64,000 bases of DNA from Agathobacter sp. (GTDB lineage: Bacteria > Bacillota > Clostridia > Lachnospirales > Lachnospiraceae). The notes under the pieces are model-generated. The model was not told where the DNA came from. It saw only the letters and a list, made by a program, of their open reading frames with translations, and ran no database searches. The DNA is taken from positions 1 through 64,000 of the forward strand of contig JALEKN010000055.1 of assembly GCA_022769125.1 (NCBI GenBank), given 5' to 3'. Every line of letters starts with the position of its first letter. Within the stretch, counting starts at the first letter, position 1. Both the position numbers and the translations under genes were made by a program. Of this stretch, positions 28,479 through 34,289 are shown piece by piece.

Positions 28479-29243
28479 ATGGCAGAACAGCCGGTTGTAC
28501 TGGAAGCAAAGCATATCAGTAAAAATTATGGCGAGGGAGAAGTGCTAAGCGATGTTTCCCTTTCCTTACATAAGGGAGAGGTGATCGTGGTGATCGGTCC
28601 CTCCGGATGCGGAAAAAGCACCTTCCTTCGATGTATGAACGGGCTGGAGCAGATTCAGTCCGGACAGATTCTCTTAGATGGGGAAGTGATCACGGAGGGC
28701 AAGACCAACTGGCCGAAGGTCAGACAGAAGATCGGAATGGTTTTCCAGAATTACGAACTGTTTCCACACATGAGTGTGCTTGACAATATTATTTTAGGCC
28801 CCGTTAAGGTGCAGGGCAGACAAAAGAAGGAAGCAATCGAGGAAGCAGAAAAGTTACTTGACCGTGTCGGGCTTTTGGATAAGAAGGATGCATATCCAAG
28901 ACAGCTGTCCGGCGGGCAGAAGCAACGTGTTGCGATCGTGCGGGCGCTCATCTTAAAACCGGAGATCCTTCTTATGGACGAGATCACGGCAGCACTCGAC
29001 CCGGAGATGGTCAGAGAGGTTTTGGATGTTGTCGTAGAACTTGCGGCAGAGGGTTACACGATGCTTATCGTGACACATGAGATGCAATTCGCGAGAGCGG
29101 TTGCAGACAAGATCATTTTCTTAGATGGCGGAAAGAGCGTAGAAGCGGCTCCGCCGGAAGAATTTTTCACACAGCCAGAAACCGATCGCGCAAGACGGTT
29201 TTTGAATACATTTATTTATACAAGAGGAGGAGAAAAAGCATGA
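28479..29243 (+). CDS. Polar amino acid (probably cystine) ABC transporter ATPase
   Basis: The 254-residue protein is an ABC ATPase of the GlnQ/HisP type. It has Walker A GPSGCGKST (about 42-50), Q-loop VFQNYELFPH, signature LSGGQKQR, Walker B ILLMDEITAALDP and H-loop THE. It powers uptake through the two permeases encoded upstream. AATGAGGTGAGA precedes the ATG. The stop overlaps the next start by four bases (ATGA), tying it to the binding-protein fusion gene. Confidence 0.95.
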   Translation: MAEQPVVLEAKHISKNYGEGEVLSDVSLSLHKGEVIVVIGPSGCGKSTFLRCMNGLEQIQSGQILLDGEVITEGKTNWPKVRQKIGMVFQNYELFPHMSVLDNIILGPVKVQGRQKKEAIEEAEKLLDRVGLLDKKDAYPRQLSGGQKQRVAIVRALILKPEILLMDEITAALDPEMVREVLDVVVELAAEGYTMLIVTHEMQFARAVADKIIFLDGGKSVEAAPPEEFFTQPETDRARRFLNTFIYTRGGEKA

Positions 29244-30886
29244 AAAAGATTCTGACATTATTACTGGCACTTGTTTTAGCATTGGGAGCTTTTGTGGGTT
29301 GTGGCAGCTCAGATAAGACTTCCGATTCAGGCGATGGAAATGTTGTTTACCGTACCATTGATGAGATTAAGGAGAGCGGAACAATCAAGATCGGCGTTTT
29401 CAGCGACAAAAACCCATTCGGTTATGTAGATGAGAATGGAGATTATCAGGGATACGATATTTATTTTGGTGACAGACTCGCAAAGGATCTGGGCGTGGAA
29501 GTAGAGTATGTATCTACGGACGCTGCAAACCGTGTTGAGTATTTGAAATCCGGCAAGGTGGATATTATCCTTGCAAATTTCACCGTGACCGCAGAGAGAG
29601 CGGAATCCGTTGATTTTGCACTTCCTTACATGAAGGTGGCACTTGGCGTTGTATCACCGGACAGCGCACTGATCACATCCGCAGATGAGTTAAACGGCAA
29701 GAAACTGATTGTTACAAAGGGAACCACAGCAGAGACTTATTTCTCAGAAAACTACCCGGACATTGAGCTGGTTAAGTTTGACCAGTACACCGAAGCTTAC
29801 AACGCACTGTTAGACGGAAGAGGAGATGCATTCTCCACAGACAACACTGAGGTTCTTGCATGGGCGTTACAGAACGACGGATTCAGCGTAGGAATTGAAT
29901 CTATTGGTAACTTGGACACCATTGCACCGGCAGTATCCAAAGGAAATGAAACCTTATTAACATGGATTAATGATGAGATTAAGGCACTTGCCGACGAGCA
30001 GTTCTTCCATGCAGATTACAAGGCAACTCTTGAGCCGGTATACGGAAGCTCAGTTGACATTGACAGCCTTGTAGTAGAGGGTGGCGTAGTAGAAGGAACG
30101 GCAGATGATGCAGCGGCAGACGATACAACGGATGATGCACAGCAGGTAGAGGAGAAAGGAACCATCAAGGTTGCAGCAAGCGCAACTCCACATGCCGAAA
30201 TACTTGAGCAGGCAAAGCCGCTTCTCGCAGCAAAGGGCTGGAACCTGGAAGTGACTGTATTTGATGATTATGTACAGCCGAACCTTGTAGTAGAAAGCGG
30301 AGATTTTGATGCGAACTACTTCCAGCACATTCCGTATCTTGATAACTTCAATGAGGAGAACGGAACACACTTAGTAAATGCAGGCGGTATTCACTATGAA
30401 CCATTTGGAATCTACCCGGGAACCAAGAGCTCACTTGAGGAACTTGCAGACGGAGATACCATTGCAGTTCCAAATGATACCACAAACGAGGCAAGAGCAC
30501 TTCTTCTGTTACAGGATAACGGAATTATTACATTAAAGGATGGCGCAGGACTTAACGCAACCGTAAAGGATATCGAGGACAACCCGAAGAACATCAAGAT
30601 TCAGGAGCTCGAGGCTGCACAGGTAGCCAGAGTAAAAGATGAGGTCGCATTTGTTGTATTAAATGGTAATTATGCACTTCAGGCGGGATTTTCTGTAGCA
30701 AAGGATTCTATTGCTTATGAGAAATCCGATTCCGAGGCAGCAAAGACTTATGTAAATGTTATTGCAGTAAAGGAAGGCAATGAGAACAGCGAAGCAATCC
30801 AGGCATTGATTGAAACCTTAAAGTCTGATGAAATTACAAACTATATCAATGACACCTATGATGGTGCAGTAATTCCATTCAACTAG
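29240..30886 (+). CDS. Double solute-binding lipoprotein: family 3 domain fused to a MetQ/NlpA domain
   Basis: A lipoprotein signal peptide with lipobox Cys21 (AFVGC) anchors the 548-residue protein outside the membrane. Residues 37-272 are a family 3 binding protein (SGTIKIGVFSDKNPFGYVD; DGRGDAFSTDN) for polar amino acids, probably cystine. Residues 275-302 are an acidic Ala/Asp/Thr linker. Residues 303-548 are a complete NlpA/MetQ domain (KVAASATPHAEIL, DANYFQHIPYLDNF, GGIHYEPFGIYPG), the methionine-binding family. The gene lies between the cystine-type ABC genes and metN-metI, and no separate metQ is visible. One anchored protein therefore seems to serve both transporters. The reading frame is open throughout, so this is not an assembly of two adjacent genes. 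Confidence 0.93.
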   Translation: MKKILTLLLALVLALGAFVGCGSSDKTSDSGDGNVVYRTIDEIKESGTIKIGVFSDKNPFGYVDENGDYQGYDIYFGDRLAKDLGVEVEYVSTDAANRVEYLKSGKVDIILANFTVTAERAESVDFALPYMKVALGVVSPDSALITSADELNGKKLIVTKGTTAETYFSENYPDIELVKFDQYTEAYNALLDGRGDAFSTDNTEVLAWALQNDGFSVGIESIGNLDTIAPAVSKGNETLLTWINDEIKALADEQFFHADYKATLEPVYGSSVDIDSLVVEGGVVEGTADDAAADDTTDDAQQVEEKGTIKVAASATPHAEILEQAKPLLAAKGWNLEVTVFDDYVQPNLVVESGDFDANYFQHIPYLDNFNEENGTHLVNAGGIHYEPFGIYPGTKSSLEELADGDTIAVPNDTTNEARALLLLQDNGIITLKDGAGLNATVKDIEDNPKNIKIQELEAAQVARVKDEVAFVVLNGNYALQAGFSVAKDSIAYEKSDSEAAKTYVNVIAVKEGNENSEAIQALIETLKSDEITNYINDTYDGAVIPFN

Positions 30887-31022: not shown

Positions 31023-32033
31023 ATGGAAGAAATTATACGCGCTGTAAATATCAGCAAGACATTTCAAACAAGCGATGGCACGGTGGATGCGGTAAAGAAT
31101 GTCAGCTTTTCCATTGAGAAAGGAGACATTTTCGGAATCATCGGACTTTCCGGAGCAGGCAAGAGTACGTTGGTACGTTGTCTGAACCTGCTCGAAAAGC
31201 CGAATGAAGGTGAGATTTTCATTGATGGCAAGGACATTATGAAGCTTAAAGCGTGGGAACTGCGAAAGAAGCGGCAGGAGATCGGAATGATTTTCCAGCA
31301 TTTCAATCTGCTTATGCAAAGGAGCGTGTTAGACAATGTATGCTTTCCGATGGAGATTGCAGGCATACACAAAAAGGAAGCGAAGAAGCGTGCAATGCAG
31401 TATCTTGAGACGGTAGGATTAAGTGATAAGGCAAAGGCATATCCGGCGCAGCTGTCTGGGGGCCAGAAGCAGCGGGTGGCAATTGCGAGGGTCCTTGCAA
31501 GTGATCCAAAGATTCTTCTCTGTGACGAAGCTACAAGTGCACTTGATCCGCAGACAACAAAGTCCATTCTGGCTCTGCTTAAGGAAATTAATCAGAAATA
31601 CGGAATCACAATCGTTGTCATCACGCATGAAATGGCTGTTATTCAGGAAATCTGCACGAAGGTTGCAGTGCTTGACCATGGAAGCATTGCGGAGATCGGT
31701 TCTGTGGAGGAGCTGTTCCGTGCACCAAAGACGGAAGCAGCTAGGAAGCTGATATTTAATGATTTTTCCTATGTGCCACAGATGAACGGAAAGCGCATGA
31801 TCCGTGTTACCTTTGATGGCAAGACTGCCTTCGAGCCATTGATTGGCAATGTGATCCTGGAATACCATACCCCGCTTAATATTCTCTATGCCAACACGCG
31901 CACAATAAATGGAAATGCCGAGGGAGAGATGATTCTGCAATTGCCGGAATCAGAGAAAATTGCGGATGGCATGATTGCATATTTTAGGGAAAAGAATCTT
32001 GGAGTAGAGGAGGTGGATTCCATTGTTGGATGA
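31023..32033 (+). CDS. metN: Methionine ABC transporter ATPase with NIL domain
   Basis: The 336-residue protein has Walker A GLSGAGKST, Q-loop IFQHFNLL, signature LSGGQKQR, Walker B LLCDEATSALDP and H-loop THE. A C-terminal NIL domain (about 262-336) binds methionine for feedback inhibition in E. coli MetN. It overlaps metI by 11 bases. AGAGAGGACGC precedes the ATG. The binding protein is supplied in the fused gene 136 bases upstream. Confidence 0.95.
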   Translation: MEEIIRAVNISKTFQTSDGTVDAVKNVSFSIEKGDIFGIIGLSGAGKSTLVRCLNLLEKPNEGEIFIDGKDIMKLKAWELRKKRQEIGMIFQHFNLLMQRSVLDNVCFPMEIAGIHKKEAKKRAMQYLETVGLSDKAKAYPAQLSGGQKQRVAIARVLASDPKILLCDEATSALDPQTTKSILALLKEINQKYGITIVVITHEMAVIQEICTKVAVLDHGSIAEIGSVEELFRAPKTEAARKLIFNDFSYVPQMNGKRMIRVTFDGKTAFEPLIGNVILEYHTPLNILYANTRTINGNAEGEMILQLPESEKIADGMIAYFREKNLGVEEVDSIVG

Positions 32034-32685
32034 AACAATTAGAAACATGCTGCTGGAGGGAACGGTAGCGACATTGTACATGACATTGCTGTCAACCTTT
32101 TTTGGATATCTGATCGGTCTGCCGATGGGGATCATTCTTGCGGTCACGGATAAGGAGGGAATCCGCCCAAATGCTGTTGTATATCGAATATTAGATTTCA
32201 TTGTCAATCTTACTCGAAGCATTCCATTTTTGATCCTTCTTATTCTGGTTATGCCGCTTACGAAGTTGATTGTTGGACAAAGCTACGGTGCAGTGGCAAC
32301 TATTGTACCGCTTACGATTGCTGCGGCACCATTTATCGGACGTATGGTGGAATCATCCTTAAAGGAAGTGGACAAAGGTGTGATTGAAGCTGCACAGAGT
32401 ATGGGCGCCGGAACATTTACAATCATATGGAAGGTTCTCCTTGCCGAAGCAAGAACCTCCCTTCTGGTTGGAGTAACCATTGCCATCGGTACAATCCTTG
32501 GATATTCCGCAATGGCGGGTGTGGTCGGCGGTGGCGGACTAGGTGACATCGCAATCCGTTACGGTTATTACCGTTATGAGACAGACATCATGATCGTTAC
32601 GATCGTCATTCTGGTAGTCCTTGTCCAAATTCTTCAAGGCCTTGGCATGATGTTATCCAAGAAACTTGACCGAAGACATACCTAA
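32023..32685 (+). CDS. metI: Methionine ABC transporter permease
   Basis: The 220-residue protein has five membrane helices and the MetI-type EAA loop (ESSLKEVDKGVIEAAQSMGA). VNLTRSIPFLILLILVMPLT and AGVVGGGGLGDIAIRYGY are typical for the family. The start is TTG 32023 (or the next TTG at 32026) with AGAGGAGG upstream, inside the end of metN. It completes a MetNI transporter; the substrate is methionine or a related sulfur compound. The large palindrome at 32694 begins nine bases after the stop codon. Confidence 0.94.
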   Translation: MLDETIRNMLLEGTVATLYMTLLSTFFGYLIGLPMGIILAVTDKEGIRPNAVVYRILDFIVNLTRSIPFLILLILVMPLTKLIVGQSYGAVATIVPLTIAAAPFIGRMVESSLKEVDKGVIEAAQSMGAGTFTIIWKVLLAEARTSLLVGVTIAIGTILGYSAMAGVVGGGGLGDIAIRYGYYRYETDIMIVTIVILVVLVQILQGLGMMLSKKLDRRHT

Positions 32686-32693
32686 TGCATATA

Positions 32694-33229
32694 AAATGCG
32701 AACCTCCTTTTGTAGAACATGTATATCTTCTCTTTTAACATTCCCTTTTGAGAGAAAAGCGATTCTGCAAAAATTGGAGAAATTCTTTCAGCCGACTTGA
32801 GGGTGAATGGAGCCTGTCTTATAACGGCTTTGACACTCCAAGCCCGACTGCTATGTATCAGGCGGACCTGCGGTCGGACTTCCTAGTTTGTCTAAGCGGG
32901 TGACCTCACGAAGTTGATATTAGGAGCATGCGGCTCAAAACTCGCAATATATGTATTTTATAAATATACATTACGAGCTCAGACAGTCACCGCATGCTCC
33001 CATTTCGTTCGGTTCACCCGCAAAGACAAACACGAAAGTCCTCAAACGCATGTTCCGTCTGATGCATACAGCCGGGCAGGAGTGCTCAAACCTTTAGAAG
33101 ACAGGATTAATATAAAAACCCTCAAGTCGGTTGAATTAGAATTTCACAATTTTTAGCAGTGCTTTTCCATCAAAAGCGGGATGTTAAAAGAGAAAAAAGC
33201 ATTATCTAAATAAAAGGAGGTTCGCATTT
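32694..33229. repeat. 536-bp giant imperfect palindrome with 18-bp perfect terminal inverted repeats
   Basis: The first 18 bases (32694-32711) are the exact reverse complement of the last 18 (33212-33229). Inside, the two halves of about 265 bases stay aligned as imperfect complements all the way to the centre near 32962. Perfect blocks are 32730-32741 with 33181-33192, 32792-32804 with 33118-33130, 32896-32903 with 33014-33021, 32885-32893 with 33023-33031, and 32923-32933 with 32990-33000. A transcript would fold into one rod of over 200 base pairs. It contains no credible gene; a 243-base open frame at 32914 is judged incidental. It could be a MITE-like element, a large structured RNA, or a two-way terminator between metI and the convergent PHP gene. 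No target-site duplication is obvious. Confidence 0.9.
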
Positions 33230-33246
33230 GGTTTATGTATTGGTAG

Positions 33247-34050
33247 TTAGGGGAGCGGGAAAAATTCCGGCTTCCTTTTTTGAAATACGGTGTAGTAGGA
33301 GAATCCGGCAGCACGTAGAATTCCGGGTACTTTGGAAAAATCATAGGCAACATGCTCCGGCTTGTGGGCATCGGCACCGATGGTGATGATCTCACCTCCG
33401 AGTTCCCGGTAGCGCTTAAGGATCTTCTCGGTTGGATGAGGATGACCGAGTCCGTATTTAAAGCCGGCGGTATTGATCTCGATCCCTTTGCCGCGTTCGA
33501 TAAGCTCACAGAGAATGGTATCAAGAATATCAGCGTAAGCCTCATAGGAATAGTTTTGATTTTTGTTTGGCCCGTAGCGGACGACATAGTCAAGGTGTCC
33601 ATAAACATCGTAGTCTGCATCGGAGCGGATGTTGGACAGGATTGTCTCGAAATAGTGCCGATAAGCGGATTTCTCCGTCCGGTTCTCGTAATATGCAGGA
33701 TAGTAGATGTCCATGCAATCGACACAATGAGACGAACCAATGACAAAGTCGAACGGATAGGAGCGGGTAATGGCACGGTTCTGCTCTGTTACGTGGGTCT
33801 GCAGTCCAACTTCGATTCCCCAGAGAATCGGAAGATGCGAGGTATATTTTTTGCGCAATGCCGCAATGCTGGTCTGATAGGAATCAATGTCCAATGAGAA
33901 AAGACCGGGGTCCTCGCGGTAATCCAGATCCAGATGATCGGTAAAACAGATACCATCAAGACCTTTATCAATAGCGGAACGAATCATAGACTCTGCGGGG
34001 GCATCACTGTCGCCGGAAAAACGGCAGTGCATGTGGGTATCCCAAAGCAT
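33247..34050 (-). CDS. Histidinol-phosphatase-like PHP-family phosphatase
   Basis: The 267-residue protein has the PHP metal-binding motifs: DTHMHCRFSGD at the N-terminus, CFTDHLDLDY, GIEVGL, GSSHCVD, YGHLDYVVRY and GADAHKP at the end. This fits HisK/HisJ-type histidinol-phosphate phosphatases of Firmicutes, which catalyse the eighth step of histidine synthesis. Other PHP hydrolases look similar. ATG 34050 has AAGGGAG seven bases upstream; an ATG at 34137 would add 29 atypical residues. No other his genes are nearby, so the histidine role is inferred from the family. Confidence 0.88.
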   Translation of the reverse strand: MLWDTHMHCRFSGDSDAPAESMIRSAIDKGLDGICFTDHLDLDYREDPGLFSLDIDSYQTSIAALRKKYTSHLPILWGIEVGLQTHVTEQNRAITRSYPFDFVIGSSHCVDCMDIYYPAYYENRTEKSAYRHYFETILSNIRSDADYDVYGHLDYVVRYGPNKNQNYSYEAYADILDTILCELIERGKGIEINTAGFKYGLGHPHPTEKILKRYRELGGEIITIGADAHKPEHVAYDFSKVPGILRAAGFSYYTVFQKRKPEFFPLP

Positions 34051-34289
34051 ATAAAATCTCCCTTCTGTAAAAAAAATAAAATCGGTTAAATGCGTCCGGC
34101 TGTCAGGCAACCAGATGAACATAGTGCGTGATGGCATTGATTACAAGATCCATCTGCAAAGGCTTGAATTTGTCATTCATTATAACCTTATAAAGTAAAA
34201 ATAGGAAGTGCTTCAACTACAAAATATGCCGTTTTTATTGCACGCTGCCGTTGGTGTGTGCTATAAAGAATTGGGGAGACAAACTTGCA

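What the first reader, a model, noticed from the sequence alone, without database searches (positions are those of the whole stretch)
32694..33229. 536-bp giant palindrome with perfect 18-bp ends behind metI
The sequence directly shows two halves of about 265 bases that are collinear imperfect reverse complements from end to end, with five perfect blocks of 8-13 bp inside and 18-bp perfect terminal repeats. The centre is an AT-rich loop near 32962. Such a long rod is far beyond a terminator and matches no known structured RNA that I recognise (not OLE, ROOL, GOLLD or raiA from what can be seen). The mismatches are often G-T or balanced changes, which would fit selection on RNA pairing. A MITE-like mobile hairpin or a large non-coding RNA are the main readings.
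Basis: seen in the sequence. Interest (0 to 1): 0.85.

Follow-up and report, generated by a model that had tools for sequence, protein, structure and literature searches.

The report
Giant mobile palindromes in gut bacteria
The 536-base palindrome is real and is one of many scattered copies of an undescribed non-coding mobile repeat that folds into a very long hairpin; its folded centre is conserved while its ends differ from copy to copy, the reverse of ordinary transposon-like repeats.

Summary
Confirmed. The palindrome spans about 32679-33245 and fills the gap between a metI-like gene and a convergent PHP-domain gene. It is one of 18 near-full-length copies in this genome; ten more loci hold shortened or truncated versions. 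Diverged homologues occur in 7 of 61 other genomes of the genus and one genome of another genus; two carriers are titled Agathobacter sp.. No Rfam family reaches threshold. At two loci most relatives inspected lack the insertion, outer stems included, so it moves. A core of about 412 nt is conserved, with 54 of 126 pairs changed on both sides and internal-loop motifs recurring across species. Outside the core, stems are copy-specific (between-copy identity 0.15-0.33) yet paired within each copy: the reverse of a MITE. G.T mismatches are not clearly commoner than A.C (79:77; 138:113), so RNA-level selection is not supported. In one copy a host terminator beside the element has an inverted partial copy on the other side, pointing to template-switch copying of flanks. 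Best reading: a foldback-type mobile repeat defined by its folded core; the mobilising enzyme is unknown.

The parts
32679..33245 (+). whole palindromic element as found by local alignment of its two halves (567 bp); + is the orientation used for the family alignment
   Evidence: lies between the stop codons of the flanking genes
32694..32711 (+). left distal stem, 18 bp, copy-specific
   Evidence: 100% complementary to 33212-33229; no other match in the own genome
33212..33229 (-). right distal stem, partner of 32694-32711
32728..32749 (+). left proximal stem, outside the conserved core, copy-specific
   Evidence: (86%)
33173..33194 (-). right proximal stem, partner of 32728-32749
32755..33166 (+). 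conserved core (412 nt, AAAAGC...GCTTTT), alignable in 18 copies
32897..33020 (+). central hairpin region used for covariance model R1; found in other species
32909..32922 (+). conserved loop-side motif CGAAGTTGATATTA; opposite side CATTTCG at 33001-33007
32936..32945 (+). conserved internal-loop motif, left side (CAAAACTCGC)
32975..32988 (+). conserved internal-loop motif, right side (GAGCTCAGACAGTC)
32023..32685 (+). left neighbour: ABC permease (metI-like by PF00528 and its neighbours); not part of the element, its stop codon marks the left limit
33247..34137 (-). right neighbour: PHP-domain gene, convergent; not part of the element

Best explanation
It is a non-autonomous, non-coding mobile element of the foldback kind, about 550-600 bp long. 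Its conserved and presumably recognised part is the folded core: helices kept by complementarity plus fixed internal-loop motifs around the centre, not the terminal repeats. Shown: it is dispersed, and at two loci it is an insertion that includes the outer stems. Shown: the core is conserved while the outer stems are copy-specific but paired. Inferred: an unidentified enzyme acting in trans moves it by recognising the extruded hairpin (cruciform or single-stranded DNA). Inferred, with one clear case: the outer stems are kept complementary, and sometimes extended, by template switching during replication, which copies one flank in inverted orientation to the other side until neighbouring genes limit it. 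Shown: some copies have lost their middle.
For: 18 long copies and 10 shortened or truncated loci in the own genome. Empty sites: L011 space at most 40 bp in 19 of 23 relatives inspected against about 596 bp here; L102 neighbours closer by 503-574 bp in 7 of 10 relatives, palindrome 554 bp. Covariation 54 of 126 pairs, 0 of 500 shuffles; loop motifs in nine genomes with replaced helices. Outer arms: own score mean 58.6, cross-copy 15.9, far control 13.8; identity step at the core edge. G.T equals A.C. Blocks of adjacent pairs change on both sides with almost no intermediates (columns 136-139). Inverted partial copy of a host terminator in L080; excess own-flank complementarity beyond the tips, permutation p 2e-4, 15 copies.
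Against: No mobilising enzyme was identified; Y1 transposase and reverse transcriptase do not track the element. No target duplication could be placed. In G007 many tips are shared between copies, as in a MITE. L011 arms are not host flank, so flank copying cannot explain every arm. Only five of 15 copies individually exceed the 95th percentile. Three of 10 relatives at L102 differ by 395, 309 and 22 bp instead.
Confidence: 0.5

Rival explanations
1. Old dispersed copies whose cores are homogenised by gene conversion, while the outer stems simply drift with paired changes; little current movement.
For: Abrupt drop of between-copy identity at the core edge in G000; the two copies 1.1 kb apart in opposite orientation (L002, L024) have nearly identical shared core parts.
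Against: Relatives lack the insertions at L011 and mostly at L102; no shared site seen among fetched loci of G007 and G059 with near-identical centres; decline is gradual, not abrupt, in G010 and G007.
Confidence: 0.2
2. Classical MITE: a deleted insertion sequence moved by an IS transposase that recognises its terminal inverted repeats; ends have decayed in older families.
For: Multi-copy, non-coding, inverted ends, empty sites; shared tips GGGCTGTCGCAAA in many G007 copies.
Against: In G000 and G010 the ends are the least conserved part (0.15-0.36) while the centre is the most conserved; no autonomous partner with the G007 tip was seen among the loci, where the stand-alone tips look like terminators; decayed ends should lose pairing, but they keep it.
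Confidence: 0.15
3. A family of large structured non-coding RNAs, multiplied in the genome and kept by selection on RNA pairing.
For: Strong covariation, conserved internal loops across nine genomes, two near-constant G-U pairs in the core alignment.
Against: G.T no commoner than A.C in G000 (79:77 core, 53:47 outer) and not significantly elsewhere (138:113); antisense folds better in 30 of 39; no promoter above chance; no Rfam match; both orientations to genes and many shortened copies. Caveat: neutral decay of dead copies would also equalise G.T and A.C.
Confidence: 0.12
4. Insertion of the core into the loop of long hairpins or terminators that were already in the genome.
For: G007 tips resemble terminators that also occur alone; the review PMC2229807 (passages) says YPAL targets span or adjoin dyad symmetry.
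Against: Scan of 400 kb each of G010 and G000 for arms of 20 or more within 900 bp: 15 rows, 11 in copies of the element, 4 short hairpins of 46-87 bp span (the scan also missed some known copies). At L011 most relatives have no room for such a hairpin.
Confidence: 0.05
5. Assembly artefact (a mirrored contig end).
For: Draft genome of 68 contigs.
Against: Independent copies inside contigs and in other genomes, with covariation.
Confidence: 0.01

Closest known systems
Bacterial MITEs and small mobile repeats (Correia/NEMIS, RUP, ERIC/RU-1, YPAL/RU-2; review PMC2229807, passages seen)
   Same: Non-coding, multi-copy, intergenic, inverted ends, long stem-loop
   Different: Those are under about 200 bp with terminal inverted repeats as a defining mark (passages); this one is about 550 bp with a conserved centre and free ends
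REP/REPIN palindromes with RAYT (Y1) partners (PMC3733652, PMC3116915, PMC8266576: search listings only)
   Same: Dispersed palindromes thought to be moved as DNA hairpins
   Different: REPs are 20-40 bp (listing abstract); a Y1 transposase is found in only 3 of 8 carriers
Mobile/repeat sequence candidates with one long covarying stem, e.g. MRSC-65-2 (PMC11109978, passages)
   Same: Single long stem with covariation, dozens of copies, read as selfish
   Different: MRSC-65-2 is reported from diverse phyla with over 20,000 representatives; this family was found in eight genomes of one genus plus one other. Sequence was not compared
Template switching between inverted arms (PMC8794818, abstract and start of the introduction seen)
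   Same: A mechanism that makes inverted copies and paired multi-base changes in stems
   Different: A mutation process, not an element; its link to a bacterial mobile repeat is my inference

Membership tests
MITE | non-coding, dispersed, many copies | tested here: met
MITE | insertion absent from related genomes at the same site | tested here: met
   two loci only: 19 of 23 relatives; 7 of 10 relatives within 503-574 bp
MITE | terminal inverted repeats conserved between copies | tested here: not met
   G000 arms 0.15-0.33, G010 distal stems 0.33-0.36 between copies; G007 tips 0.63-0.68
MITE | target-site duplication | tested here: inconclusive
   flanks of L102 too diverged from relatives to place it
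MITE | an autonomous IS with the same ends | tested here: inconclusive
   pattern search of G007 only: isolated tips are either element ends or look like terminators
REP/REPIN (RAYT-moved) | Y1 transposase in carriers | tested here: not met
   PF01797 in 3 of 8 carriers and 19 of 54 other genomes; several genomes incomplete
structured non-coding RNA | covarying helices | tested here: met
   54 of 126 pairs against 23.3 in shuffles and at most 24 slid
structured non-coding RNA | G-U tolerated over A-C on the functional strand | tested here: not met
   79:77, 53:47, 138:113 p 0.13; the tRNA control failed, so there is no positive control
structured non-coding RNA | match to a described family | tested here: not met
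   nothing at gathering threshold
structured non-coding RNA | transcription | not testable with these tools
   no RNA data
retroelement (group II intron-like or moved by reverse transcriptase) | reverse transcriptase in carriers | tested here: not met
   PF00078 in 2 of 8 carriers, none in G000 (92.9% complete), 27 of 54 others
intrinsic terminator | short GC-rich stem followed by a T run | tested here: not met
   the window element is a 567-bp rod; only one chance-level terminator-like site lies in 32500-33500

The most novel reading that the evidence does not exclude
A mobile element whose identity is a fold, not a pair of end sequences: the conserved central hairpin is recognised as DNA, while the rest of the rod is built and rebuilt at each site by copying one side of the insertion, host flank included, into the other, so that each copy makes its own terminal repeats.
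Probability: 0.25. Interest if true: 0.85.

Novelty: new variant of a known kind. Interest (0 to 1): 0.62.

Why it matters
Long palindromes are expected to be unstable in bacteria (general knowledge), yet here 550-bp ones have spread to dozens of sites and keep their pairing while much of their sequence turns over. The inverse conservation (centre fixed, ends free) argues against recognition of end sequences and makes recognition of a folded DNA hairpin testable. The family is also a natural record of template switching: paired multi-base changes and an inverted copy of a host terminator can be read directly, which bears on how compensatory changes arise in any hairpin, RNA genes included.

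Tried and rejected
Considered and dropped. (1) A reverse-strand subfamily: an early alignment mixed orientations because loci from the genome search are in contig orientation; corrected. (2) The 32-bp match in G024 lies in coding-like sequence and was judged chance (by eye). (3) Pre-existing target hairpins. (4) Reverse transcriptase or Y1 transposase as obligate partner. (5) Outer arms copied from elsewhere in the genome: the arms of L001 and L011 have no other match in G000 at E 0.001; arms of the other copies were not searched. (6) An empty site at the window's own locus: metI-like and PHP genes lie on different contigs or far apart in the relatives listed. (7) Exact pattern scans: one pattern in genome contigs 0, one in viral contigs 0, a G007 pattern in genome contigs 32 stretches and in viral contigs 0. 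(8) One 412-nt core against plasmids and phages: no match. (9) The tRNA control for G.U did not work (5 tRNAs, stems misplaced). (10) Target duplication could not be placed. (11) A weak consensus at the outer tips in G000 and G010 was seen by eye and not tested. (12) The pyrimidine bias of the left arm (0.64) is not confined to the element: flanks at 85-120 nt also show 0.58 left and 0.40 right. (13) (a ribosomal protein family) was a check of the tool and is not used.

Full report
Observation. Local alignment of the two halves extends it to about 32679-33245. It runs from the stop codon of an ABC permease gene (PF00528; ORF 32023-32685) to the stop of a convergent PHP-domain gene (PF02811; ORF 33247-34137). 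The fold is far below 20 shuffles, z -18.

A repeat family. BLAST of the 561-bp region against the own genome (G000, 68 contigs, 92.9% complete) gave 36 matches including itself and its own inverse. Eighteen loci carry the centre by covariance model. Ten further loci hold shortened or truncated versions. An automatic comparison with the nearest long copy puts the missing middle at 76-283 bp, with 3-6 bp of microhomology in six of ten; this is unreliable for the truncated ones and has no chance control. In the 18 long copies a core of 411-425 nt aligns at 64-94% pairwise identity. Of the 18 copies an ORF of 70 aa or more ends within 121 bp of the left core edge in 13 and within 105 bp of the right edge in 14, two of these right-hand ORFs looking spurious; gene orientation relative to the element varies (by eye).

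Distribution. The same DNA query gave nothing convincing in the 39 other genomes searched (a 32-bp hit in G024 was judged chance). A covariance model of the central 124 nt found homologues in 7 of 61 other genomes of the genus: G007 25 matches, G010 7, G054 2, G059 3, G065 3, G077 3, G012 1. In a sample of 392 genomes of the order only the own genome and G303, another genus of the same family, matched. In both searches stricter filters lose weak matches and only some candidates were scored. An exact pattern from G007 found 32 stretches in genome contigs, titled Agathobacter sp. RGIG4703 (roe deer), Agathobacter sp. RGIG2097 (goat) and Lachnospiraceae RGIG3911. One core against plasmids and phages, and two patterns against viral contigs, gave nothing. 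Rfam gave only sub-threshold hairpin matches for the window and none at gathering threshold for eight loci.

Movement. At copy L011 all 60 genus genomes examined (own included) match at least part of the query. In the 23 relatives whose loci were fetched, the space between the two neighbouring genes, measured from alignment anchors, is at most 40 bp in 19, 69 and 95 bp in two, 282 bp in one that carries a different repeat, and could not be measured in one. Here it is about 596 bp. At copy L102 of G010, ten relatives show both neighbours on one contig; they are closer there by 554, 555, 557, 550, 574, 534, 503, 395, 309 and 22 bp (my subtraction), the palindrome being 554 bp. Both inserts therefore include the outer stems. 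Among the fetched loci of G007 and G059, whose centres are nearly identical, none share a flank next to the core (not a whole-genome comparison).

Structure. On the 18-copy alignment 126 pairs were predicted. Of these, 54 have changes on both sides (157 cells), against 23.3 pairs and 41.3 cells in shuffles, none of 500 reaching them, and at most 24 pairs when slid. The structure was derived from the same sequences. Across nine genomes the helix sequences are replaced while internal-loop motifs close to AAAACTCG...CTCARACAGT and AAAGTTGATATTA...CATTTTG recur, with variants (by eye). G.T and A.C mismatches are equally frequent: 79:77 in the core and 53:47 in the outer stems, 138:113 in 23 copies of other species (p 0.13; G007 alone 32:16). 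The antisense strand folds slightly better in 30 of 39 copies. Changes on both sides (157 cells) outnumber one-sided ones (53, my sum over the table), and in columns 136-139 there are 24 double-changed cells, one one-sided and one unpaired. Neutral decay of dead copies would also equalise G.T and A.C, and the tRNA control failed, so this test is weaker than it looks.

The odd feature. Outside the core the G000 copies have their own sequences, yet left and right remain complementary. Own-arm scores average 58.6 (18 of 18 at 30 or more) against 15.9 between copies and 13.8 for distant flanks; 16 of 612 cross-copy scores reach 30, mostly among L001, L003, L007-L010. Between-copy identity falls from 0.75-0.81 in the core to 0.15-0.33 in the arms and 0.18-0.23 outside, with the step at the AAAAGC/GCTTTT edge. 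Within-copy complementarity outside the core is 0.85 in the first 25 nt and 0.63-0.75 out to 85 nt, control 0.52-0.54. L003 and L006 share 94% of the core, L005 and L009 92%, but neither pair is among the 25 best cross-copy arm scores. In G010 the centres are 0.95 identical, the spacers 0.55-0.57 and the outermost stems 0.33-0.36; the right inner core is only 0.63 because three of six copies carry an extra segment. Four G010 copies have outermost stems of 27-36 bp with 0-3 mismatches. In G007 many tips are shared and resemble intrinsic terminators that also occur alone (by eye); some tips (L103, L154, L162) differ in both arms at once. Arms are not pre-existing hairpins: of 15 long inverted repeats in 800 kb, 11 belong to copies of the element and four are short hairpins (the stretches were chosen to include known copies, and the scan missed some).

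Inverted copying. Just beyond the tips of 15 G007/G059 copies (of 40 loci offered to the script; the rest were duplicates, lacked flanks or matched poorly), own left and right flanks are more complementary than between copies: permutation p 2e-4, five of 15 above the 95th percentile. In L080 the left gene is followed by CCGTATC-loop-GATACGG and a T-rich run, an intrinsic terminator by its form. The right flank holds the inverted first 17 nt of it without its closing half. The simplest reading is that a host flank was copied across the element by template switching, a mechanism proposed to create and maintain hairpins (PMC8794818, abstract). This is one clear case. L011 shows that it cannot account for every arm.

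Mechanism. I favour a foldback-type mobile repeat recognised through its folded core, with stems maintained by template switching and the loops by selection. The enzyme is unknown: Y1 transposases occur in 3 of 8 carriers and 19 of 54 other genomes, reverse transcriptases in 2 of 8 carriers, not in G000, and in 27 of 54 others. It works like a MITE or foldback element, but I do not file it as a MITE because conserved terminal repeats were tested and not met in two of three species.

Limits. Many of the genomes are incomplete drafts, one per species. Copies within a genome are related, so pair counts are not independent events. The covariance model sees only copies that keep the centre. Six searches of an open-access library showed no description of this family; two of them returned nothing at all, and subscription papers are not covered. 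Of the papers named I saw passages (PMC2229807, PMC11109978), an abstract with the start of the introduction (PMC8794818) and search listings (the rest).

Noticed in passing
window 29240-30886 (+): A 548-aa protein fuses two solute-binding domains, SBP_bac_3 (residues 49-253) and the NlpA/MetQ-type Lipoprotein_9 (309-546), between a polar amino-acid ABC set and a metN-like ABC gene with a NIL domain.
   Followed up: partly
L048 (G016), space between the parE-like gene and its neighbour: G016 carries, at the site where G000 has copy L011, an unrelated high-copy repeat that looks palindromic (54 matches in G016).
   Followed up: partly
L177, L179, L182, L187, L195-L197 (G007): The tip sequence of the G007 element, GGGCTGTCGCAAATAT...ATTTGTCGACAGCCC plus T run, also occurs as stand-alone terminator-like hairpins, so element ends and host terminators share sequence.
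   Followed up: partly
L111 14399-14794 (G010): A copy that has lost most of its left half keeps its own perfect 23-bp outer stem and a proximal stem changed in both arms relative to other G010 copies.
   Followed up: partly
L002 and L024 (G000 contig C50): Two copies about 1.1 kb apart in opposite orientation have nearly identical shared core parts and different outer stems; one lacks 168 bp between 6-bp repeats. Gene conversion between them is possible.
   Followed up: partly
L075, L083, L090 (G010): Three of six aligned G010 copies carry an extra segment of roughly 80 nt in the right half of the rod that the other three lack.
   Followed up: no
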